The notes beneath the pieces were generated by a model. It was not told where the DNA came from, ran no database searches, and saw only the letters and a list, made by a program, of their open reading frames with translations. Both the position numbers and the translations under genes were made by a program. Positions 31,797-52,677 of a stretch of 64,000 bases of DNA are shown here, in pieces; positions within the stretch are counted from its first letter, which is position 1; every line of letters begins with the position of its first letter. This DNA comes from a virus, in IMG/VR virus record IMGVR_UViG_3300045534_000133, positions 1 to 64,000 of that record. One strand, 5' to 3'.

Positions 31797-34700
31797 CTAT
31801 AGCTTGGTGAGAAGGCTGTTTTTGTGCGGCGGCAGCAGCGTCACCTCGATCTCAAAGTGGTTGCCCATTTTCTTTGTCCCCAGCAGCACCATGCGAGCGC
31901 CGGGCAGAGAAGTCAGTTCCGCCTCGCTGTCGTAACTGTAGCCGGAGCCCTTGTAGGTCGGCATCATCTTGGCCCCCTTGGCCGCGCGATAGACGATGCG
32001 GGCCCGGGTTTTGGGGTCGGAGCCCGCAAAGCCGGAGGTAGACGTTGGCGACATGCTGTTGCAAGCGCTGCCCGGGTTCTGCAGCACAGTCCCTACTGGC
32101 GCTGACAGCAGGGCCGCCTGCATGTTCGGCTCGACGCGCAGCCACTTGTAGACCGTCGAGCCCTCCGGCAGTTCCACGGCGTCCTTGTGCATGGCGACGT
32201 TTGCGGCAACGAGGTCAATGCTGCCGTGCGTCGTCTTGCCCTGATTGTAGGCATCATTGATGGCGCCAGAGCCCTGCACCGAGTTCATAAATTGCTTGGA
32301 CAGGGGTGAGGCCTTTTCGCGCAGACCCGGGATGCTGTTTTTGAACGAGGCGGGCACCGTCTCGGTGATCGGAGCCTTGGGCAGAAAGTCGGCGCGCTCG
32401 CCCTGAACCTGCCCAAGGGCCATCCAGAAGCCGACGCGCTGGTTCATCGGCATCTGCTTCACCGTCGTCAGCAGGGGCGCCGTCGGGAACGCCTCTGCAA
32501 TCTTGGCCAGAGAGGCTTTCTTGATCGTCTTGGCAGGGACCAGCGGTTTGGGCGGGTTGAACTTGTCGTCCACCGCCTTCATCGTGTCGGACCAGTACCC
32601 CTGCATCTTCATTGAGGGGTGAGCCGAAAACTCTAGCTGCTTGCCCGTCAGTGTGCCCTCGGCGTCGTCAATATGCTCCGGGTACGTCAGGCCTTTCAGC
32701 TTGGTCAGGTTGCCTTCGAGGGCAGCAGCCTCAATCGCATCGACGCTCTGTTGGTTGACCGTGTTTTTCCACGCCTTGGAGGACTTGTCGAAAGTGGGCT
32801 TGGGAGGCAGATCGGCCTTCGTGATCACCACCTTTTTCGGCTTGGCGGGCGTCGGCTCGACAACCTCAACCACCTCCTCGATCTCGTCGGCGGCAGCAGC
32901 GTTCTCGGCAGCACCGGTTAGGGCCGGGTGGGCCAGCTTTTTCTGCCCCGGGACCACCTTGTGCGGAGAGCCCAGCGCGGCCAGCGCATTGTTCGCCAGC
33001 GCAGCCTGCTTTTTGCCGTAGGTGTTGGTGCCGTAGTTCAGACCGAGGATGCCGGACTTGTTGCCGACATTGGCCAGCTTCTCGATCAGGTCGACCTTGG
33101 CGTTGTGGCTGGACGCGTTTGAGTTCGAGGCGTCCAGCTTGGCCGCCGCGAAGTCGGGCAGGGCGGGCTTCACGGTGTCTGCCGTCAGTTCCGCATACAG
33201 GGCGTCGGTGTCGACCGCGCCTTTCGCCTTTTTCCCGGTGGCGATCTCCCAGTTGGTGGCCATCGCCTTCGCGTAAGCGTTTATGGCCGTGGTGTTCGGC
33301 ATGCCCGCATCGAGTTCGGTGCCATACAATGTCCCGGCGAGCGCCTTGGCATGTGTCGAGGCCACCGCTCCCGGCCCGCCCGGCCCGTACTTGCTTTGCA
33401 GCCACGAAATGCCTTCGGAATAAGCGTCACCCGGCAGGGTCGGAGGCAGCGGCTGGATGCCATTGCTGCCCAGACGGACAGCCTGCTTGGCGTAGTACTC
33501 CGCGCTGATCATGTCGAAGACCACAGAGGGGGCACCCGACGCGGTCTTTTCGCCCCACTTCGGCGTCACACCGGCCAGCACGTCATGATAGGTGGCCAGC
33601 GCCTTGCCGTAGCCGCCCAGAGCAACACCTTGCGTGCTGGCTTTGTCGTAAAGATTGTCATTCAAAATGAGTTCGTGAGTGCTTTTTGACGGCGGGAAAC
33701 CCTCTATGTATTTCTTTTTCAGCCAGTTCACGTCTTCCGTGTTGCCGTGCATCCCGGGCCCTTTGGGCGCGGTTGGCATCAATCCGTCCTGCGCATCCAT
33801 GACCGCCAGTTCGGCGTATTCTTGGGCCGACTTCATGTCGGTGATCTCGGGGTAGCCGGATGATGCGGCCGAAGGTGTGCTGGCCAGCGAGACGCCAGCC
33901 GCCATCGTGGTAACGCCGGGCTTGCCGGTGCCGAACTTGTTGTTGGCCTCCTCAAACTCGCTGGCGGTGTAGAGGTACTTCGCGATGGCGTCTGGTATCT
34001 GGGCGATGCTCGCCGGGCTGATGCCGTCGTGAAACGCCGCAAGCTGGCCGTAGTAGGCCGCCACCTTCATGGCATCCCACTTCGTCTTCCCGTCGGTGTT
34101 CATGGCGTTCGTCAGCCATGTGTTGTTCAGCATGCTCAACATCGGCTTGGCGGCCAAGGTCGCCTTGCCCATGGCCTGCTCGTCGGCCTGTATCGTCGCG
34201 ATCGACTCGGCGGCCTTCCCGCCGGGCGACACCACTGGCGGCTCGGCGACGAACGCGCCAGTCTTGGCCGCCACGTCGTACATCGTGCTGGACGCAGCCT
34301 GCGGGGCGTCGCTCGCGGCCGGAAGGTTCATCGGGGCGAGGTTGGCCTTGGCCAGAATCTGGTCCCGGCGTGCCATCAGTTTCGAGGCCAGCTTCTGCTT
34401 GGTGTTCTGGCCGTCGTCCACCCAGTAGGCATCCACCAGCGCGGTGATCTTCTCGTCGGTCATGCCCTTGAGCGCTTCGGCGGAGTCCTGCAGGCCGGTG
34501 GCGTTCATGCTGCCAAACAGACCAGCCGCATCCGCGTTTTTGGCCGGGTCGCGCATCGTTTCCCAGTCCGGTGCACCGGCAGTGAACTCCATGGCCGTCT
34601 TCGGTTGGCCTTGGGCGCGGTACAGCAGGGCGCCGCCCGGGTCGATGTTCACCACCTCGCCGTCTGGCGTCACCAGCAGGTTGTCGCCGCCCATGCCCAC

Positions 34701-37700
34701 CACATCCCAGTTCCCCAGCCACGCATGGACCGCGAACTGCTGCTTGGCCTTGGACCGTTGGCCGGGGGTGCTGATCTTCTGCAGCCCCTCAACCCACTTT
34801 GTGGCCACACCCAGACCGCCACCATACTTGCCGCCGAGATCGACCAGCTTGTACTCGGGCGCGGGGATGCCAGCAGCCTCCATCAGTTTGGACGCCAGCA
34901 CCTCGTTGCGGGCCCGGGCGTCGTCCTTGCCCTGCAGGTTGCCTTTCACCAGCCACTTCTGGCCGTCGGCGTCCTCGTAGAGGCCCTTGGGAGCCGTGCC
35001 GCCGATGCCGTCGCTCTTGATCAGGGTCCAGCCCGAGATGGACTGCGGCCCCAGCTTGCCGTCGATCACTTTGGCCGACTGGGCCGCCATGCCTTTCCCT
35101 TGCCACACGAACATCAGTTCCATGGCGTACTGCCCGACCTGCGCCTTCCACTTCGTGTGGGAGTTCGTCTTCACGTTCGGATTGAAGGCATCCATGATCG
35201 CGAAGTTCTTTTTGTAGAGCGCTGCAGCCGGGGCAATATCGCCCTTCACAGCAGCATCGAAGACCGCCTTCATCTGGTTATAGTAGGTCGCGTTCGCGCC
35301 CGGGCCGGAGCCGTCCTTTTTCCAGCCGATCTTGGGCGGAGCCGGGTAGCCCCCGGAACCGCCACCTTGGTCCTTGAACTGGCCGCCCAGCGGCGTGCCC
35401 TTGGGCCAGCGGTCAACCTTGCTCTCGTCGAACTTTTTGCGGACCTTCACTCCAGTGAGGTCTTCAAGCGCCTCTACAATCGGGTGGTCCGTGTATCCGT
35501 TGTTCAGCCATGTGCGCAGCGTCGAGACGGGCGCCAGCCGGACAGCCTGCGACTCCCAGCCCATGCGGGCAGGGCTGCCGCCGACGCGCTTGGCCAGATA
35601 CATGCGGGCCGTTGACGTGGTGCGCTCGAAGTCGCCCAGAACGCCGGTGATCTCCACCTGCAGACCAGACTCCTCGAACGCTTCCTTGATGGCGTTCGCC
35701 TGCAGGCTCGGCACGTCGTCTTCGTAGGTGCCCTTGGGGAACGTCTGGCGGTAGCCGCCAAAGCCGTTCGTGGGGCTCACAATCCAGACCCGGCCGTCCT
35801 CCTCCTGCACGATCACGCCAGCGCCGATGTTTTTCCCCTTTGGGGCCGTCAGTTCTGGCAGCATGGCTTCAACGGCCGGGTTCTGGCCCGGCACCTTCAC
35901 CCACTCGGCCGCCGTCTGGGGCGGCTTGTAGGCCAGCTTCGTGGGGATGCCCTGCAGCACGGCAGGGGCCGGGCTGTTTGGGGTAAACGTCGCCGTGGCG
36001 TCCGGGTCGTTCCACACCACCTCGGGGCTGGCCTTGGACGGGTATTTGACCCAGACCTCGCCACCGTCATCATCGGTGTGCGGGTGCTTCACAGCGCTCG
36101 ACGGCAGAGAGTACGACTTGTCGGCACCAGTGTCGGTTTTCCCGGTCCACTTCGGGCCGGTCTTCGGGCCGTCGAACGGCTTCGTGATGCCGTTGAAATC
36201 AAGCGGGTGCTTTGCCTTCGGCTTCGGCGTGTCGAACAGCGGACCGCTGCTCCACGTCACCTTGGGCTTCGGCGCAGCATCAGACCCGGGCTTCGGCTGG
36301 AACTTGCCACCGTCCGGGTGGCCCTTTGGGGCCCGGGGGTGCATCCACGACTGCCACAGGCCCTTGATGCCCTTGCGCACGCGCTCGATCGCGCTCGGCT
36401 CGACGGCAGGCTCAACGGGCTCGCTGGCCATCGAAAGGGCCATAGCGAAGGCGTCCATCTCGGCACGCAGAGTGCCGGGCTTGGCCTTGGTGATGCCTAC
36501 GCCTTGGGGGCGGCGGGCTTTGCGCCCTTCGGCTCGGGCGAGGTATTTGCCGACGAGGGTGGTCGCTTCACTCCGAAGACGACCAGCGGCTTGGCGAAGG
36601 GGTGCGGCCCCTTCCGTGGCACCACTGGCATAGTCGTATTCCTTTTTGTCAGGGAAGGCCGAATAGGCCTCGTCGGTCGAAATGTCGTATTTACGCTCAA
36701 GCTGTGCGTCGATCAAGTCCGCCAGCTTATCCGTCGGCACACCGCTGTAGTTCAGCACGATCATCTGCCCGTCAGCAGTCGAGTGACCGCCAATCAGGGG
36801 TTCGCCATCCTCGCCCTTAATCGCCCAGAGGCGGTCATACAGGGTGGAAACAGAGGCCAGATCGCGCTCGCTTTCCGGCAGTTCGATCGTGACGATGCCG
36901 ACCGGCTCCATGCCTTCGGCGGCGGTTTCGGAAACCACCATCATGCTGTCCTGTGACAGCGCGAAGCCCAGCACCTTGGAGAGTTCGATGGCCTTGGCCG
37001 GGTCATCGACGCGAACCGACAGGCTCGGGTTCGTCGCACCCAGATAGCCGCCGATCTGCTCCGAAAACTCACCCTTGCTGCCGACAGCCTCCAGCGCTTT
37101 CGGGACCAGATCGGCCGAAACCGACTGGCTGATCTCGAACTTGTCGGCGTCGTCCAGAGCGTTCCAACGTGCCGTCAGACCCGCATCGTTCGGGTCCGGC
37201 GCCACCTCGAAAAACACCTTGGCGTCAGGGTTGCCCCCTATGCCTTGGGAGCCTCCAGCGGTCGTTTGCGGAGCGACACCTGCCCCTCCCGCATCCATTT
37301 GGCCCGGGCCTCCATCCGTTCCTCCGCCGCCGGGCCGTAGGGCCCGTCCCGCCACGAGGTTTTTGACGCCGATGGATTCGGTGATGCGCTCGGAGCCTTG
37401 GGGTCCGTTAACGTCGATTTCGGCATAGCCGTCCGCCTCTCCCTTGATGGTCTGATATGTGGTTTTGGGCTTGTCGCCGATCGAGGCGAAGTAGCCGGGG
37501 TCGATCAGCCGCCCGGTTTTCAAATAGCGCGCGGCCATGCGGCGCGCAGCCTCGTCAGGAGTCACCATGACGTGCAACAGCTCGACCGTATAGCCTTCGG
37601 ATTGGTAGTCGTCAATAAGCCCGGCCAGTTTTTCTCGGTTGTGGCCGACGACCGGGTAAATGATGTTGGCGCCGCTGGCGCGCAGTTCCATCCCGACAGC

Positions 37701-38411
37701 ATCGCTGATGAACTTGGACTCTTCGTGAACGGCTGCAGCGCCAAGACCACCGGCGAACTCGGGCACCAGTTTTTTGGCGTCATCGCTGTCCCAGATCGCG
37801 GCGCCCTGCTGCTCGGCCAGCAGTTCAGACACGGTGGATTTACCGGCGGCCGGAGGCCCCACCACGACCGTCATTTTCCGATCGTAGGCCAGCTTGCCCT
37901 TGGCGTAGCCCTTCGCCGTGGCCACCAGATCGTCAAGGGTTTCGTCGATATCCTTGCCGCCCGCGTAGGTGCGCCCACCCACGAAGGCCTGCATCTGCTC
38001 GTTCGTCATGTCCGGCGTGACCGTCGGCGTGATCAGCCGCATCTTCTCGGCGGCAGGCTCCAGAGCCGCCATCAGTTCAGCAGCGGGGGCTTTGTCTGCG
38101 ATCTTCGCCCAGACCGCATCAGCAGCTTCCTGCCCGATATCCTTGAGGACCGTAGGGTGAGGCTCGCCCGGCATAACCTTGGCAGGGTTGGTCTTGCTTC
38201 CGACGAACCCGACCGATGCCATGGCCTTGCCCTCGCTGCCGTGGCCGCCGGGCTTTTCGACAGCGCCCAAGGCCGGGCCTTCGTTGGGCTTGCCGTCATT
38301 GATCTTTCCGTCGCCGTCGCCGTCGCGAGGGTCGCGCGCCTTGGCGACGCTCTCCTCAACCCGGGCCATCAGGGCGGCTATGCGCTGTCCGAGTTGTTCG
38401 CCGTCTGCCAT
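31797..38411 (-). CDS. Giant polyvalent protein: zeta-toxin, Nudix, kinase and ADP-ribosyltransferase domains
   Basis: 2204 residues. Order: Asp/Gly calcium-loop-like DGDGDGKINDG (~35); zeta-toxin-like P-loop domain ~175-350 (GPPAAGKST at ~185, WDSDDAKK); unknown domain ~397-595 (ALSQDSMMVV, GGHSTADGQM, AFPDKKEYDY); PKGHPDGGKF motif; Nudix-like ~858-985 (IKEAFEESGL, Lys for Arg); KGTPLGGQF; HipA/PI4K-like kinase ~1140-1380 (KWLVKGN, GNWDVVGMGGDNLL, NIDPGG); ~90-residue tandem repeats ~1520-1735; R-S-E ADP-ribosyltransferase ~2080-2190 (Arg in YKWLRVEP, STSGF, EAELTS). Encoded among head genes, it is probably packaged and injected to modify host targets. Start ATG 38411 has GGGGG upstream. Confidence 0.9.
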   Translation of the reverse strand: MADGEQLGQRIAALMARVEESVAKARDPRDGDGDGKINDGKPNEGPALGAVEKPGGHGSEGKAMASVGFVGSKTNPAKVMPGEPHPTVLKDIGQEAADAVWAKIADKAPAAELMAALEPAAEKMRLITPTVTPDMTNEQMQAFVGGRTYAGGKDIDETLDDLVATAKGYAKGKLAYDRKMTVVVGPPAAGKSTVSELLAEQQGAAIWDSDDAKKLVPEFAGGLGAAAVHEESKFISDAVGMELRASGANIIYPVVGHNREKLAGLIDDYQSEGYTVELLHVMVTPDEAARRMAARYLKTGRLIDPGYFASIGDKPKTTYQTIKGEADGYAEIDVNGPQGSERITESIGVKNLVAGRALRPGGGGTDGGPGQMDAGGAGVAPQTTAGGSQGIGGNPDAKVFFEVAPDPNDAGLTARWNALDDADKFEISQSVSADLVPKALEAVGSKGEFSEQIGGYLGATNPSLSVRVDDPAKAIELSKVLGFALSQDSMMVVSETAAEGMEPVGIVTIELPESERDLASVSTLYDRLWAIKGEDGEPLIGGHSTADGQMIVLNYSGVPTDKLADLIDAQLERKYDISTDEAYSAFPDKKEYDYASGATEGAAPLRQAAGRLRSEATTLVGKYLARAEGRKARRPQGVGITKAKPGTLRAEMDAFAMALSMASEPVEPAVEPSAIERVRKGIKGLWQSWMHPRAPKGHPDGGKFQPKPGSDAAPKPKVTWSSGPLFDTPKPKAKHPLDFNGITKPFDGPKTGPKWTGKTDTGADKSYSLPSSAVKHPHTDDDGGEVWVKYPSKASPEVVWNDPDATATFTPNSPAPAVLQGIPTKLAYKPPQTAAEWVKVPGQNPAVEAMLPELTAPKGKNIGAGVIVQEEDGRVWIVSPTNGFGGYRQTFPKGTYEDDVPSLQANAIKEAFEESGLQVEITGVLGDFERTTSTARMYLAKRVGGSPARMGWESQAVRLAPVSTLRTWLNNGYTDHPIVEALEDLTGVKVRKKFDESKVDRWPKGTPLGGQFKDQGGGSGGYPAPPKIGWKKDGSGPGANATYYNQMKAVFDAAVKGDIAPAAALYKKNFAIMDAFNPNVKTNSHTKWKAQVGQYAMELMFVWQGKGMAAQSAKVIDGKLGPQSISGWTLIKSDGIGGTAPKGLYEDADGQKWLVKGNLQGKDDARARNEVLASKLMEAAGIPAPEYKLVDLGGKYGGGLGVATKWVEGLQKISTPGQRSKAKQQFAVHAWLGNWDVVGMGGDNLLVTPDGEVVNIDPGGALLYRAQGQPKTAMEFTAGAPDWETMRDPAKNADAAGLFGSMNATGLQDSAEALKGMTDEKITALVDAYWVDDGQNTKQKLASKLMARRDQILAKANLAPMNLPAASDAPQAASSTMYDVAAKTGAFVAEPPVVSPGGKAAESIATIQADEQAMGKATLAAKPMLSMLNNTWLTNAMNTDGKTKWDAMKVAAYYGQLAAFHDGISPASIAQIPDAIAKYLYTASEFEEANNKFGTGKPGVTTMAAGVSLASTPSAASSGYPEITDMKSAQEYAELAVMDAQDGLMPTAPKGPGMHGNTEDVNWLKKKYIEGFPPSKSTHELILNDNLYDKASTQGVALGGYGKALATYHDVLAGVTPKWGEKTASGAPSVVFDMISAEYYAKQAVRLGSNGIQPLPPTLPGDAYSEGISWLQSKYGPGGPGAVASTHAKALAGTLYGTELDAGMPNTTAINAYAKAMATNWEIATGKKAKGAVDTDALYAELTADTVKPALPDFAAAKLDASNSNASSHNAKVDLIEKLANVGNKSGILGLNYGTNTYGKKQAALANNALAALGSPHKVVPGQKKLAHPALTGAAENAAAADEIEEVVEVVEPTPAKPKKVVITKADLPPKPTFDKSSKAWKNTVNQQSVDAIEAAALEGNLTKLKGLTYPEHIDDAEGTLTGKQLEFSAHPSMKMQGYWSDTMKAVDDKFNPPKPLVPAKTIKKASLAKIAEAFPTAPLLTTVKQMPMNQRVGFWMALGQVQGERADFLPKAPITETVPASFKNSIPGLREKASPLSKQFMNSVQGSGAINDAYNQGKTTHGSIDLVAANVAMHKDAVELPEGSTVYKWLRVEPNMQAALLSAPVGTVLQNPGSACNSMSPTSTSGFAGSDPKTRARIVYRAAKGAKMMPTYKGSGYSYDSEAELTSLPGARMVLLGTKKMGNHFEIEVTLLPPHKNSLLTKL

Positions 38412-38441
38412 GGTGGCCCCCTGATTCCGTGCAGCGAGCCT

Positions 38442-38618
38442 ATGCGAACGACGGACGACTTGACAGCCTACCGTCGCCTCACCGGTCTCGCTCGCGCGCT
38501 TGGCGAGGAGGCTGACGACTGCATGTCGCCGATCACCGCCGCCGCGTTCAGGGCAGCGTCTCACTTCCTCACCCGTCTGGCCAGCGCCGTTTACACCAAG
38601 GGGCTCAAGCTGGACTGA
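38442..38618 (+). CDS. Possible small antisense-oriented gene (58 aa)
   Basis: A rightward reading frame in the 193-base gap between the Mu gpF-like gene and the giant gene: MRTTDDLTAYRRLTGLARAL, then a Met-Ser-Pro-Ile turn, FRAASHFLTRLASAVY and KGLKLD. It reads like a compact helical hairpin and has high third-position GC, but it opposes the surrounding operon and has only a weak ribosome site. It overlaps the end of the neighbouring gene by 14 bases. Confidence 0.4.
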   Translation: MRTTDDLTAYRRLTGLARALGEEADDCMSPITAAAFRAASHFLTRLASAVYTKGLKLD

Positions 38619-48367: not shown

Positions 48368-48666
48368 TCGCGGGGACGGAGATCGTCGCCTACAAGCGGT
48401 GGCAGGCCGACGGCACAGCGCTGGACATGTTTACATGGCCCATGGGCCCGAACGGTTGCAAAGCCTTGGCCGCGATCTGGACCGCCCGCCTGCAGAGCGG
48501 TCGATACAGCCGCATCGAACTGCGAATGGCCAACGGTCAGACCGTCGTCGTTAAGGCGAAGCGCGCCAAGGTGCCCCATGTGGAGGGAGTCTACATCGGC
48601 GACATGCCCTATCACGAATGGCTGGACACCCTGCAGCCCCGGCCGGAAGCTGGAGACGCGACATGA
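48364..48666 (+). CDS. Hypothetical protein (100 aa)
   Basis: GTG 48364 overlaps the upstream stop. Beta-rich with a helix (GPNGCKALAAIWTARLQSG), RIELRMANGQTVVVKAKRAK and a C-terminal segment (YIGDMPYHEWLDTLQ). No family recognised. It directly precedes, by ATGA overlap, the alpha-CTD homologue. Confidence 0.65.
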   Translation: MIAGTEIVAYKRWQADGTALDMFTWPMGPNGCKALAAIWTARLQSGRYSRIELRMANGQTVVVKAKRAKVPHVEGVYIGDMPYHEWLDTLQPRPEAGDAT

Positions 48667-49085
48667 CCGACAAACCAGTTTCCGGCCCAACGCTGTGGGT
48701 TTTGGAGGACATGATCAAACGGCGAGACCAGCGCATCATGGCGCTGGAGCGCTTGCTGGCCACCGTCGCTAAAGACGCTCTTGCCCTTCTCGATCGCCGC
48801 CTAGATCACGGGCCTGTCATCTACGACTCGACCATCCTCAACGGTGAGGTTTCTGAACTGCTGTTCTCAACCCGCACCGCGCGGGCACTGGAGGGGGCAG
48901 GTATTATCCGCGTCGGCGACCTTACCAAAACGACACGCGCCTACTTGTTGGGGCTGCCCAACATGGGGGCCAAGTCCGTCAATGAGATCGAGGAGGCTCT
49001 GGGCCACATGGACCTGTCACTGGCAGGTGGCCGCTCTCCTCACATTGAGGCGTACCTGCAGCGGCACAGGGAAGCCCGCCCATGA
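48663..49085 (+). CDS. RNA polymerase alpha-CTD-like protein (140 aa)
   Basis: An N-terminal coiled segment (LEDMIKRRDQRIMALERLLA) precedes a domain at ~58-118 that aligns with the C-terminal domain of RNA polymerase alpha: SELLFSTRTARALEGAGI, IRVGDLTKTTRAYLLGLP, NMGAKSVNEIEEALGHM. By alignment the DNA-contacting Arg265, Gly296, Lys298, Ser299 and Glu302 of E. coli alpha are kept, while Asn268 is Arg. It could bind UP elements or activators and redirect host transcription, with the coil replacing the linker to polymerase. Overlaps neighbours by 4 bases. Confidence 0.85.
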   Translation: MTDKPVSGPTLWVLEDMIKRRDQRIMALERLLATVAKDALALLDRRLDHGPVIYDSTILNGEVSELLFSTRTARALEGAGIIRVGDLTKTTRAYLLGLPNMGAKSVNEIEEALGHMDLSLAGGRSPHIEAYLQRHREARP

Positions 49086-49613: not shown

Positions 49614-49690
49614 TGGGAGCGAGAGAGGGATTTGAACCCTCGACCTTCCGGGTATGAGCCGGACGCGCTACCGGACTGCGCCATCTCGCA
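49614..49690 (-). tRNA. tRNA-Met (CAT), initiator-like
   Basis: 77 bases with encoded CCA. All four arms pair: D-stem GCGC/GCGC, anticodon stem TCCGG/CCGGA with loop CTCATAC, T-stem GAGGG/CCCTC with loop TTCAAAT. The acceptor stem has six pairs but position 1:72 is T-T, an unpaired end that is a hallmark of bacterial initiator tRNAs; the D-loop and variable region also resemble initiator tRNA. The three G-C pairs of the initiator anticodon stem are not fully kept (CGG instead of GGG), and the 11:24 pair is C-G. It lies three bases after the tmRNA terminal hairpin T-run and may be cut from the same transcript. Confidence 0.92.
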
Positions 49691-49700
49691 TCAAAAAGGT

Positions 49701-49728
49701 GCCGGGGTTCTGTTGCCAAGCCCCCGGC
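49701..49728 (-). terminator. tmRNA terminal hairpin
   Basis: GCCGGGG and CCCCGGC pair around a 14-base loop, followed after ACC by TTTTT (49697-49693). It may serve both as the 3' end structure of the coding piece and as a partial terminator before the tRNA. Confidence 0.65.
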
Positions 49729-49737
49729 GGGCTCCGC

Positions 49738-49779
49738 TTAGGCCGCTTGGGCCATGGGCTGGTAGTCGTTGTCGTTCAG
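49738..49779 (-). other. tmRNA tag-peptide reading frame
   Basis: Codons from CTG at 49779 to TAA at 49738 encode LNDNDYQPMAQAA. The run before it (AAATAAAA) matches the position of the A-rich element before tmRNA resume codons. The NDN start and the Ala-Ala end are normal for tags that send proteins to ClpXP, but the resume codon CTG and the QPMAQ middle are unusual. The exact resume codon is inferred. Confidence 0.75.
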
Positions 49780-50009
49780 TTTTATTTCGTGCCGACTGGT
49801 TACGGCGTCCTATGGCAAATCGAGTCTATTCGCCCCCATCATGGCCGCACCGCACAGGTCAGTTACGGAAGCCTTCGCAGGAACTCCCGGCCCTCCCATC
49901 TCCCGCGCTATGAACCCGGTCTGTGGAGGCCTGCCGATGCGGCTATGGTGGAGGCGCCGGGATTCGCACCCGGGTCTTTACCAGAACCCAGCCTGTGTGC
50001 CCCACAGAA

Positions 50010-50023
50010 GCTAGAGCGTCAAG
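50010..50023 (-). promoter_or_regulatory. GCTCTAGC box upstream of the tmRNA
   Basis: On the leftward strand the octamer GCTCTAGC (50017-50010) lies just before the acceptor hairpin, preceded by CTTGAC. It is the same octamer found before rightward genes, here in the opposite orientation and placed where transcription of the tmRNA should begin. Confidence 0.5.
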
Positions 50024-50026
50024 CCT

Positions 50027-50146
50027 TTACGACGGCTCGACCGGGTGCCACTCGGTTGAGGTGTACCCGTTCTCGTCAACGAAGGAGCAGGCCTCCCAGA
50101 GAGCCCCGTCCTCCGCCAAGAAAAAGACCTGCCCTGTCTGGGTCAT
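50027..50146 (-). CDS. Small coupled protein (39 aa)
   Basis: ATG 50146 lies two bases after the stop of the 842-residue virion gene. Sequence starts MTQTGQVFFLAEDGALWEAC and ends with WHPVEPS. A tiny beta-type protein with acidic character; no signal or membrane segment. Coupling, good codon use and the immediate start of the tmRNA region after its stop support it. It may assist the virion protein or be virion associated. Confidence 0.62.
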   Translation of the reverse strand: MTQTGQVFFLAEDGALWEACSFVDENGYTSTEWHPVEPS

Positions 50147-50148
50147 GG

Positions 50149-52677
50149 CTAATCATGCGCTTTGATCAGAACGTAGCCGAGGGTCGCACCGGAGCCTGCC
50201 GTGGAGACACGGGCACGGAGAGCGGCAGCGTTTACGTCCGGCACGGTGACCTGAACGGTCGAAGATGCGACGCCGGTAAGCGGAGAGCCGATGGCGTACC
50301 ACGTCGCGCCGAAGTCGTCCGAACCTTCAAGCTGGAACGCCGGGGCGGTCGTGGTGATCGCACCCATATTGACGACAAGCTGGGTGGCGTTGCCGCAGTC
50401 ACGGGCCAGCAGAACAGGCGTGGTGCTGTTGCCGGTGTTCGGCGCGATAGAGCGGTCGATCAGTTGGCGCGTGTTGGGGAACGGCGCGTTCGATTGCAGA
50501 CGGTTGATCGCGCGGGTGAACGAAGGCGTCGTGCCACCGATAGTCTGCACATAGCGGATGCGGTTGCCGGTCACAGGCAGGAACGGGCTGCGATAAATGC
50601 CCGTCGCCGTGATGCGCGGGAAGTCATACACCGTGAACCAGTTGGTGCCCGCGTCGTCGCTTTCCTCGATACGAACATCCAGCGTCGGGTTCGTGCCGCT
50701 GACAACCGTGACCGGAATGTTCACCTGATAGGAAATGCCGAAGCCGGGCGTGACAGCGGCAACCGTGGCGGTCGTGGTAATGGCCGCAGAGGCAACGTCG
50801 GCCACTGAAGCCATCAGAGCAAGGTTGGCGGCACCGATGGTGTTCGCACCAGCCGGAAGCGCGTTTGTGATTCCGGTCACCGCCGTGATCGTGCCAGAAG
50901 ACACCGTAACAGCCGGGACGTTCTGGACCGCCACAGGGGCCGCGCCCGAGATATCGCCGGTCGGGCGGGCCAGCACCTCAACGCGCTGGCGTTCGTAGTC
51001 GAAGATGCGAACGAACGACATGCGGAAGCATGACCGCTTGATAACAGCGCCAGCCGAGTTGGTCAGGGCGAAATCAGCAGGGAGGGTGGCTGCAAACGCC
51101 GCCGTGCCGGGCACAAGGGTCAGAGCCGTGGTGGCCGAGTTGGCCACCTTCCACACCCCGTCAACGCCGAGGGTGGCCCCGTTGGTCACGTTGGTGATGC
51201 CTTCGGCGTTCACATAGTCGCCGATCAGCAGACCAGCCCACGCAGCAGCACCGGTGATCACCAGTTGCCGGGTGCCGTTCGTCAGGGTGGACAGGGTGAC
51301 GTTGACGCCGGAGTTGTTGATGACCCCGAGGGCCGACAGAAGGTTGCCGCCTTGCACCTTGGCGATGACGCCGCCGTAACCAGTGACCGTCGAGGCCGTG
51401 CCTATCACCATAGTGAAGGTGGTCGCGTCAACAACCGTGACAGCCGTGGCCGCGACGACGTTCGGGAAGGCAGCCGCCGCCGTGTTGCTGTTGCCGTAAT
51501 AGACGATCAGATCGCCAGTCGTCAGGCCGTGTGCCGTCGCCGTCGTGAAAGTGCCGGTCGTCGTGCCGGTCTTGACGACGCTAACCACCTTGGCGGTCAG
51601 CACAGTCAAGGACTTCGAGTTGTTCGCGCGGATGCGGAGCCGGTAGTTCACAGACGGGTCCGGGCACACCTGCGTCCGCAGCACTCGACCGACGGCCTGC
51701 ACCAAGCTGTCCACCGGGCTGTCAGCCGTCTGAACGCGGTCAGCTTGGAGGTTGAACCGGTATTCGGAAGTCGGCGAGAAGGCGTAGGCGTACGGGGAGT
51801 TGACCAGTTGCACCGACGCAGCCGTAGCAACCGTGATCGCGTGGTTGCCCAAGATCGTGCCCGAGGGCAGTACGTCGCCGCTCTCCGACCGAAGATAGAA
51901 ACTGGCGTTCGTGATCGTGGCGTTCTCGAAAATCTGCGACACGCCGTTCTGGGCGCGTCCAAGACGCTCGCGAGCAAAGACCGAGCCTTTCGCGCCGACC
52001 GGGTTCGTGATGGTCTGCGAAGGGATGGTGCCGCCCGGTCCTGCGGTGCAGGTAAACTGGCGCGGCGTCGGGGTTGAAGCCACCACCAGCGCCGGATAGT
52101 TGGCCAGTTGGTTCGAGCAACCGACGATGCCAATGGACTGACCGGGCACCAGCCCGTGATCTGCTGAGGTATCGACAGTCAGGATGGTCGTGGTTTGCGT
52201 GATCGACGAAATCGCAATGTCAGCCACGGCAGCCAGAGGCGTCTGTGTGTCCACAATTTCGACGGAGAACTCTTGCCCGAGCGTGGCCTGCGAACGGCTT
52301 GCCCCGTACGCGAGTTCAAGCGGCATCCCGAAGGTGTCGATGGTTTCGAGCGTGGTCTGGTTTCCTGCGTCCCAAGGGGACTTGGAGATCATCAGATACG
52401 ATGCGCTCGCCGCATTACCGTCAGTCTGGACAATATCGCCCGTGCCCGTGGTGCGCGTCCAGTTCGCCAGCGACGGGTCTTCAAACGCATCCCGGAACTT
52501 CGTCTTGATGTTTGAGGCGACCACATCAATCGGCGACGGGGCGACAATCGGAACAGGAGCGTGATCGGAGGCCAGAACAACCGAGCGCGAGTTTGCGCTG
52601 GCCAGAGGGCCATCAGCGTTCGGGATGTTGATGGCGACGACGTTTCCAGCGGCGTCCAGTACGTTCATGGTGGTCAT
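50149..52677 (-). CDS. Large virion-associated fibre/decoration protein (842 aa)
   Basis: Beta-rich, Thr/Val/Ala-rich, almost no Lys, as in extended phage fibres. Starts MTTMNVLDAAGNVVAINIPN. At least two E1-FCCH-like repeats are seen (SADHGLVPGQSIGIVG and ATAHGLTTGDLIVYYG, each followed by a TFTM/QFTC strand). C-terminal segments (VRIEESDDAGTNWFTVYDF, LEGSDDFGATWYAIGSPL) look like paired beta-sandwich domains. Encoded downstream of the portal and well apart from the tail tip genes, it may be a head fibre. No enzymatic motif seen. Confidence 0.75.
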   Translation of the reverse strand: MTTMNVLDAAGNVVAINIPNADGPLASANSRSVVLASDHAPVPIVAPSPIDVVASNIKTKFRDAFEDPSLANWTRTTGTGDIVQTDGNAASASYLMISKSPWDAGNQTTLETIDTFGMPLELAYGASRSQATLGQEFSVEIVDTQTPLAAVADIAISSITQTTTILTVDTSADHGLVPGQSIGIVGCSNQLANYPALVVASTPTPRQFTCTAGPGGTIPSQTITNPVGAKGSVFARERLGRAQNGVSQIFENATITNASFYLRSESGDVLPSGTILGNHAITVATAASVQLVNSPYAYAFSPTSEYRFNLQADRVQTADSPVDSLVQAVGRVLRTQVCPDPSVNYRLRIRANNSKSLTVLTAKVVSVVKTGTTTGTFTTATAHGLTTGDLIVYYGNSNTAAAAFPNVVAATAVTVVDATTFTMVIGTASTVTGYGGVIAKVQGGNLLSALGVINNSGVNVTLSTLTNGTRQLVITGAAAWAGLLIGDYVNAEGITNVTNGATLGVDGVWKVANSATTALTLVPGTAAFAATLPADFALTNSAGAVIKRSCFRMSFVRIFDYERQRVEVLARPTGDISGAAPVAVQNVPAVTVSSGTITAVTGITNALPAGANTIGAANLALMASVADVASAAITTTATVAAVTPGFGISYQVNIPVTVVSGTNPTLDVRIEESDDAGTNWFTVYDFPRITATGIYRSPFLPVTGNRIRYVQTIGGTTPSFTRAINRLQSNAPFPNTRQLIDRSIAPNTGNSTTPVLLARDCGNATQLVVNMGAITTTAPAFQLEGSDDFGATWYAIGSPLTGVASSTVQVTVPDVNAAALRARVSTAGSGATLGYVLIKAHD

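What the first reader, a model, noticed from the sequence alone, without database searches (positions are those of the whole stretch)
49698..50008. Phage-encoded circularly permuted tmRNA
Directly seen: an acceptor half (T-arm, CGCCTCC-A-CCA) lies upstream of a coding half that starts GGGGGCG and carries a tag frame. The two halves pair in the acceptor stem (7 of 7, with the G-U alanine determinant at position 3) and in the next helix (TTTGCCA with TGGTAAA). Known: two-piece tmRNA is the alphaproteobacterial form; one-piece tmRNAs are known in some phages. A permuted one in a phage, with its own box and hairpin end, could rescue ribosomes, retag host proteins, or compete with host ssrA for SmpB.
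Basis: partly seen in the sequence, partly recalled or inferred. Interest (0 to 1): 0.95.

Follow-up and report, generated by a model that had tools for sequence, protein, structure and literature searches.

The report
Phage-borne two-piece tmRNA with initiator tRNA
A bacterial virus carries its own two-piece tmRNA (an RNA that frees stuck ribosomes and tags the unfinished protein) right beside its own start-codon tRNA; viruses with such tmRNAs were already known, so the gene is a new member of a known kind, but its pairing with a start tRNA in unrelated phages seems not to have been described.

Summary
Confirmed. On the minus strand, 50004-49738 matches Rfam RF04321 tmRNA_permuted (59.3 bits, cut-off 47, E 5.7e-9). 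ARAGORN misses it and the alpha_tmRNA model stays below its cut-off. The acceptor stem pairs 7/7 with G3.U70, the next helix 7/7 with five pairs changed on both sides against the family consensus, and T-loop base 55 and a D-loop base co-vary as they do across about 50 phage tmRNAs. The tag frame reads LNDNDYQPMAQAA-stop, with CUG where most use an Ala codon; relatives with CUG, GUG or GUC there show that this is a shared trait, not decay. An initiator-type tRNA-Met follows 47 bases downstream.

The record is a 72.3-kb metagenomic siphovirus. Phage two-piece tmRNAs are already published (phage Melnitz; 53 in a 2021 phage survey), so this is a new member of a known kind. What I did not find described is the tmRNA plus initiator-tRNA neighbourhood in at least three phage lineages (this one, Caulobacter/Brevundimonas giants, contig L269), mostly unannotated. 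Most likely role: rescue of ribosomes stalled during infection, using host SmpB (no smpB gene found), with degradative tagging. Expression, processing, charging and function are not shown.

The parts
49946..50004 (-). Acceptor (3' tRNA-like) piece as matched by Rfam: P2' strand TGGTAAA (49977-49983), T-arm (49957-49973), acceptor strand CGCCTCC (49950-49956), A73 and encoded CCA (49946-49949). True 5' end of the precursor unknown, probably a little upstream of 50004
   Evidence: RF04321 alignment; pairing computed
49838..49945 (-). Intervening sequence (108 bases), expected to be removed; folds into a long hairpin that brings the two acceptor strands together
   Evidence: Fold of 49691-50030, z = -3.3; segment lengths
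49780..49837 (-). 5' part of the coding piece: acceptor strand GGGGGCG (G3.U70), D-loop AATAGACTCGA (A at 49827 co-varies with G55 at 49967), P2 strand TTTGCCA, pre-tag segment
49738..49779 (-). Tag reading frame: CUG resume codon, LNDNDYQPMAQAA, UAA stop
   Evidence: Sequence; frame aligned without gaps to ANDN-type tags; same CTG in L269
49701..49728 (-). 3' hairpin of the coding piece, GCCGGGGGCTTGGCAACAGAACCCCGGC; closely similar hairpin with CAACAGAA loop in phiCbK, CcrColossus and L268-L270
49614..49690 (-). tRNA-Met(CAU), initiator type (no standard pair at 1-72: U1/U72; G30-C40, G31-C39; C38 in the anticodon loop), starting 47 bases after the tag stop
   Evidence: ARAGORN, RF00005 64.3 bits, comparison with phage and E. 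coli initiator tRNAs
50027..50146 (-). 39-codon ORF (MTQTGQVFFLAEDGALWEACSFVDENGYTSTEWHPVEPS) directly upstream of the tmRNA; possible small gene in the same transcript
   Evidence: Translation only; no homology test done

Best explanation
The element is a phage-encoded, circularly permuted ssrA gene. Inferred working: one transcript is cut by host tRNA-processing enzymes (RNase P at GGGGGCG and perhaps at the 5' end of the adjoining tRNA; 3' processing to the encoded CCA). This leaves an acceptor piece of about 60-80 nt and a coding piece of about 140 nt, held together by the 7-bp acceptor stem and P2. Host AlaRS charges it (G3.U70), host SmpB and EF-Tu deliver it to ribosomes stalled on broken mRNAs during infection, and the ribosome resumes at CUG, adds A-LNDNDYQPMAQAA and terminates. 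The ribosome is recycled to phage mRNAs and the tagged fragment goes to host proteases. The adjoining initiator tRNA would support re-initiation by the freed ribosomes, or replace a host initiator tRNA cut by a defence nuclease.
For: Shown by sequence: RF04321 full-length match above cut-off; acceptor 7/7 with the alanine determinant G3.U70; P2 7/7, with five of seven pairs differing from the family consensus on both sides yet still paired (consensus); across 51 distinct phage tmRNAs a P2 strand pairs with its own partner better than with others' (mean 5.5 v 3.7 of 7); all 27 sequences with G55 have A in the D-loop, while U55 goes with G in 19 (5 further U55 rows were scored A, at least three of them through an ambiguous reading of CAAGG/CTAGG); compensatory acceptor change G5-C68 to C5-G68 in L269, L127 and L130. 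Tag frame open with Ala-Ala end, and the tag varies among relatives while keeping NDN and AA (VNDNDAPVMEQLLAA, LNDNYPIAQAIAA, VNDNQDLSYAVAA). No SmpB gene in the record, in the eight named phages or in eight other tmRNA-bearing viral records, so host SmpB must be used.
Against: No expression, processing, charging or tagging data. No promoter found. Host unknown, so no comparison with host ssrA was possible. The tag ends QAA rather than the usual LAA/VAA/IAA, which could weaken protease recognition. Of 48 records reached through capsid, terminase or portal relatives only Tunturi_4 has RF04321, so the gene is dispensable in this broader phage group.
Confidence: 0.72

Rival explanations
1. It is a decoy: the tRNA-like part sequesters host SmpB or AlaRS and so inhibits host trans-translation, as proposed for mycobacteriophage DS6A's tag-less tmRNA.
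For: DS6A carries little more than the tRNA-like domain, and a similar molecule inhibits tmRNA (PMC4131195; PMC11915505). No phage SmpB is encoded.
Against: The tag frame, a stop codon, AlaAla end, 3' hairpin and encoded CCA are all kept, and relatives keep the frame with sequence change; a decoy would not need a reading frame.
Confidence: 0.1
2. It is a non-functional or decaying copy of a host ssrA picked up by transduction or left from integration at ssrA.
For: RF04321 score is on the low side of the phage set (59 bits v up to 141); alpha model below cut-off; CUG instead of an Ala resume codon; compact 58-base pre-tag segment.
Against: Every tested pairing element is intact; CUG recurs in L269, and GUG/GUC occupy this place in L268/L270 and CcrColossus; a 62-base pre-tag segment is seen in L010, L012 and L120. 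A full-length gene with conserved flanking hairpin is not an att fragment.
Confidence: 0.12
3. The two RNAs together are a translation-shield cassette: tmRNA and an altered initiator tRNA replace host RNAs destroyed by anti-phage RNases (VapC-type toxins cut initiator tRNA between anticodon stem and loop). This overlaps with the rescue reading and concerns why the tRNA is there.
For: Window tRNA has C38 and C29-G41 where E. coli and most other phage initiators compared have A38 and a different 29-41 pair; VapC homologues cut tRNA-fMet at the stem-loop border, and an alphaproteobacterial toxin, BoVapC1, acts on tRNA-fMet (PMC8522696); phage tRNAs often carry anticodon-loop changes of this kind (PMC10264068). 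tmRNA and initiator tRNA lie close together in three phage lineages.
Against: Only the window's tRNA has C38; the other phage initiators keep A38. No host, so no host VapC or host tRNA to compare. Adjacency in Caulobacter phages is within larger tRNA clusters.
Confidence: 0.2

Closest known systems
Alphaproteobacterial two-piece tmRNA (ssrA; Rfam RF04321, RF01849), e.g. Caulobacter
   Same: Gene order acceptor half - intervening sequence - coding half; acceptor stem with G3.U70; P2; TCGA D-loop; NDN-type tag ending in Ala-Ala
   Different: Phage-borne; score below the RF01849 cut-off; CUG resume codon; T-loop G55 with D-loop A; tag ends QAA
Permuted tmRNAs of Caulobacter/Brevundimonas giant phages (CcrColossus, phiCbK, CcrSC, Kabachok, Bajun)
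   Same: Permuted tmRNA followed by initiator-type tRNA-Met; related 3' hairpin in CcrColossus and phiCbK; NDND tag motif; non-Ala resume codon in CcrColossus (GUC)
   Different: Jumbo phages of 200-356 kb with further tRNAs, a different phage group from this 72-kb siphovirus; tRNA roughly 0.1-0.5 kb away rather than 47 bases; all viewed records except Bajun leave the tmRNA unannotated
Methylophilales phage Melnitz two-piece tmRNA (PMC9004378)
   Same: Phage-encoded permuted tmRNA of alphaproteobacterial type
   Different: Marine myophage; associated with a glutamine riboswitch; no initiator tRNA reported next to it in the passages read
Mycobacteriophage tmRNAs (Bxz1, Wildcat; DS6A TLD-only)
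   Same: Phage-encoded tmRNA
   Different: One-piece form (or tag-less in DS6A), not permuted

Membership tests
Permuted (two-piece) tmRNA, Rfam RF04321 | Covariance-model score at or above gathering cut-off (47 bits) | tested here: met
   59.3 bits, full model 1-213
Permuted (two-piece) tmRNA, Rfam RF04321 | 3' acceptor half encoded upstream of the 5' coding half, with an intervening sequence | tested here: met
   CCA ends at 49946, GGGGGCG starts at 49837, 108-base gap, minus strand
Permuted (two-piece) tmRNA, Rfam RF04321 | Alanine identity: G3.U70 in the acceptor stem | tested here: met
   GGGGGCG/CGCCTCC, 7 of 7 pairs
Permuted (two-piece) tmRNA, Rfam RF04321 | Open tag frame ending in a short hydrophobic or Ala-Ala terminus and a stop | tested here: met
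   LNDNDYQPMAQAA-UAA; terminal residue triplet QAA is atypical
Permuted (two-piece) tmRNA, Rfam RF04321 | Alanine resume codon (common in members, not strictly defining) | tested here: not met
   CUG; but relatives L269 (CUG), L268/L270 (GUG), CcrColossus (GUC) share non-Ala codons
Permuted (two-piece) tmRNA, Rfam RF04321 | Mature RNA in two pieces, charged with alanine and bound by SmpB | not testable with these tools
   Needs RNA from infected cells or in vitro assays
Alphaproteobacterial tmRNA, Rfam RF01849 | Score at or above 50 bits | tested here: not met
   40.9 bits, positions 82-173 only
Initiator tRNA (tRNA-fMet), neighbour | Weak or no 1-72 pair; G-C-rich anticodon stem; CAU anticodon | tested here: met
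   U1/U72, C29-G41, G30-C40, G31-C39, CAU; the third canonical G-C (29-41) is reversed
Initiator tRNA (tRNA-fMet), neighbour | Formylated and used in initiation | not testable with these tools
   Needs biochemistry

The most novel reading that the evidence does not exclude
Unrelated phages of Alphaproteobacteria have repeatedly assembled a restart cassette of a two-piece tmRNA and an altered initiator tRNA. The tmRNA frees ribosomes from broken mRNAs and the (possibly nuclease-resistant) initiator tRNA reloads them on phage mRNAs; the tmRNA forms a distinct phage group with a non-alanine resume codon.
Probability: 0.25. Interest if true: 0.75.

Novelty: new member of a known kind. Interest (0 to 1): 0.45.

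Why it matters
It shows that phage permuted tmRNAs are commoner than annotation suggests, because a standard finder misses divergent ones: ARAGORN missed this one, CcrColossus and Kabachok. It also makes a question testable: what a phage gains from its own tmRNA. Caulobacter phages such as phiCbK and CcrColossus are laboratory phages of a host where two-piece tmRNA was first worked out, and they carry the same tmRNA plus initiator-tRNA neighbourhood, so deletion, tagging and infection experiments are practical there.

Tried and rejected
Portal protein in viral contigs gave no confirmed relative; megablast of 24 kb against INPHARED gave none. Capsid and terminase searches gave distant relatives, of which only Tunturi_4 carries RF04321; the 842-aa upstream protein has no family and no match in the records tested. 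An exact 26-base T-arm/CCA pattern in 84,980 genomes hit only Elusimicrobia with standard one-piece tmRNA, judged convergence, so the host could not be inferred this way. A sigma-70 promoter or intrinsic terminator was not found; the hairpin before the T-run is shared with other phage tmRNAs, so I reject a terminator-only reading. L266/L267 matched the 3' hairpin pattern but have no tmRNA. SmpB (PF01668) and release-factor (PF00472) genes were sought: none in this record. First attempts at the pairing script used too loose an offset or failed through indexing errors and were replaced.

Full report
What is there. On the minus strand of the window, 50004-49738 matches Rfam RF04321 (tmRNA_permuted) over its whole length with 59.3 bits, cut-off 47, E 5.7e-9; the same search over the 72,325-base virus record gives one place only. 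ARAGORN does not report it but finds a tRNA-Met at 49690-49614. The alphaproteobacterial model RF01849 scores 40.9, below its cut-off of 50. In transcript order: P2' strand TGGTAAA, T-arm, acceptor strand CGCCTCC, A, CCA (ends 49946); 108 bases of intervening sequence; GGGGGCG (from 49837), D-loop, TCGA, P2 strand TTTGCCA, a short pre-tag segment, the tag frame CTG AAC GAC AAC GAC TAC CAG CCC ATG GCC CAA GCG GCC TAA (49779-49738), and a hairpin GCCGGGG...CCCCGGC (49728-49701); the tRNA follows at 49690.

Is it more than chance. The covariance model answers this by itself. Four further tests agree. (1) Energy folding of 49691-50030, which knows no homology, forms the T-arm, acceptor stem, P2, the intervening hairpin and the 3' hairpin, z = -3.3, none of 100 shuffles as good. 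(2) Against the RF04321 consensus, five of seven P2 pairs have changed on both sides and all seven still pair. (3) Over 51 distinct phage tmRNAs collected here, P2 strands pair better with their own partner (mean 5.5 of 7) than with another's (3.7); the offset was fixed, so some true helices are scored out of register. (4) T-loop base 55 and a D-loop base co-vary: all 27 sequences with G55 have A, 19 with U55 have G; five U55 rows were scored A, at least three of them (CAAGG, CTAGG forms) where the short pattern matched ambiguously; the earlier count gave 27, 19, one exception and three unread. The window has G55 and A. Acceptor stems also show a compensatory change, GGGGCCG/CGGCTCC in L269, L127 and L130.

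Carrier. The record is a siphovirus-like phage: portal phrog_113, large terminase, major head protein phrog_1005, tape measure, DnaB-type helicase, two DNA methyltransferases. It has no near relative in INPHARED by DNA over the 24 kb searched. The nearest capsid relatives there are Pseudomonas KPP23 and Roseobacter RDJL phages at 51-59 percent. Of 48 records reached through capsid, terminase or portal relatives, only Tunturiibacter phage Tunturi_4 has RF04321; many of those records are fragments. The tmRNA looks like an accessory gene in this group. The host is unknown; the high G+C and tmRNA type suggest an alphaproteobacterium (inference).

Relatives of the RNA. A T-arm/CCA pattern in IMG/VR returned 120 contigs (the scan stopped at its limit); of the 80 displayed, 27 of the first 50 and 15 of the next 30 pass the RF04321 cut-off, and so do all eight named phages tested with them. 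BLAST with the window locus found Caulobacter and Brevundimonas giant phages. RF04321 is above cut-off in CcrColossus, phiCbK, CcrSC, Kabachok, Bajun, Rhodobacter phages RcSimone-Hastad and RcRudolph, and Alcaligenes phage QDWS595. In the records opened, only Bajun has a tmRNA annotated. The paper on the Brevundimonas phages states in a table note on tRNA and tmRNA detection that none could be detected. A pattern from the 3' hairpin brought in L268/L270 (tag VNDNQDLSYAVAA) and L269 (tag LNDNYPIAQAIAA with the same CTG). L269 comes from a different phage type: terminase phrog_675, portal phrog_12, and no match to the window's portal.

Resume codon. In most phage tags of the set the first codon is Ala. 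The window has CUG, L269 CUG, L268/L270 GUG, CcrColossus GUC. A shared non-Ala codon in still-varying tags points to a functional variant, not decay. Whether it alters resumption is unknown.

The neighbour. The tRNA is of initiator type: U1/U72, CAU anticodon, G30-C40 and G31-C39, overall pattern of E. coli tRNA-fMet (that sequence from memory). CcrColossus, phiCbK, CcrSC, Kabachok and Bajun have an initiator-like tRNA-Met downstream of the tmRNA, and L269 has one about 520 bases upstream. Among the other IMG/VR tmRNA loci no tRNA-Met was found within the stretch scanned, except L041, which has the contig length (322,272) of CcrBL9 and the tag of the CcrSC group. So the neighbourhood is specific to a few phage lineages. 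The window's copy alone has C38 and C29-G41, at the stem-loop border where VapC toxins cut initiator tRNA (PMC8522696; PMC10264068). PMC10264068 reports that phages generally avoid encoding tRNA-fMet where a host VapC targets it, which makes these cases worth testing.

How it most likely works. Shown: anatomy, co-variation, tag frame, absence of a detectable phage smpB. Inferred: transcription, RNase P and 3' processing into two pieces, alanylation by host AlaRS, use of host SmpB, resumption at CUG, tagging and proteolysis. I put 0.72 on rescue with tagging, about 0.1 on a decoy, about 0.12 on a decaying copy; the shield reading (0.2) overlaps with rescue and concerns why the tRNA is there.

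Novelty. Phage two-piece tmRNA is known (PMC9004378; 79 unique bacteriophage tmRNA sequences in the 2025 database, PMC11915505; tmRNAs of form not stated in Sphingobium phage Lacusarx, PMC5648845, and Bradyrhizobium elkanii phages, PMC12656738). My searches of the open library found no paper holding both Dolichocephalovirinae and tmRNA, and nothing evident by title on a phage tmRNA/initiator-tRNA pair; subscription journals were not searchable. I file it as a new member of a known kind.

Noticed in passing
L260 1533-2294 (Tunturiibacter phage Tunturi_4, PP885687.1 43532-44293): Unannotated permuted tmRNA (RF04321 79.2 bits) in a phage of an acidobacterium, with an unusually long 33-aa tag (ANTVTSTIRNVASVRTGFFRSAEPITNRYAVAA), directly beside a 115-aa RF-1-domain protein with a GGQ motif (ArfB-like): a possible two-component ribosome-rescue cassette.
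   Followed up: partly
window 48618-49085 (+): 155-aa protein with an RNA polymerase alpha C-terminal domain (PF03118, 46.6 bits): a phage-encoded alpha-CTD-like protein, possibly a transcription regulator.
   Followed up: no
window 31797-38564 (-): 2255-aa polyvalent protein with Zeta-toxin kinase, NUDIX and a weak HipA_C match.
   Followed up: no
L124 1476-1962 (-), phiCbK: GOLLD RNA (RF02032, 165 bits) overlapping a tRNA-Gly about 0.5 kb from the tmRNA in Caulobacter phage phiCbK; the record annotates only the tRNA.
   Followed up: no
window 50027-50146 (-): 39-codon ORF between the 842-aa ORF and the tmRNA.
   Followed up: no
window 50149-52677 (-): 842-aa protein with no Pfam or PHROG match and no match in the records tested.
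   Followed up: partly
L131-L138 (Elusimicrobia): Eight Elusimicrobia genomes share the window's exact 26-base T-arm/acceptor/CCA sequence but in standard one-piece tmRNA with tags ending AWAHA.
   Followed up: partly
L126 2971-3258, L129 1971-2259, L128 1971-2224: Unannotated permuted tmRNAs in Rhodobacter phages RcSimone-Hastad and RcRudolph (same tag ANDNVRMDAQALAA) and Alcaligenes phage QDWS595 (ANDNVYAAAA).
   Followed up: partly
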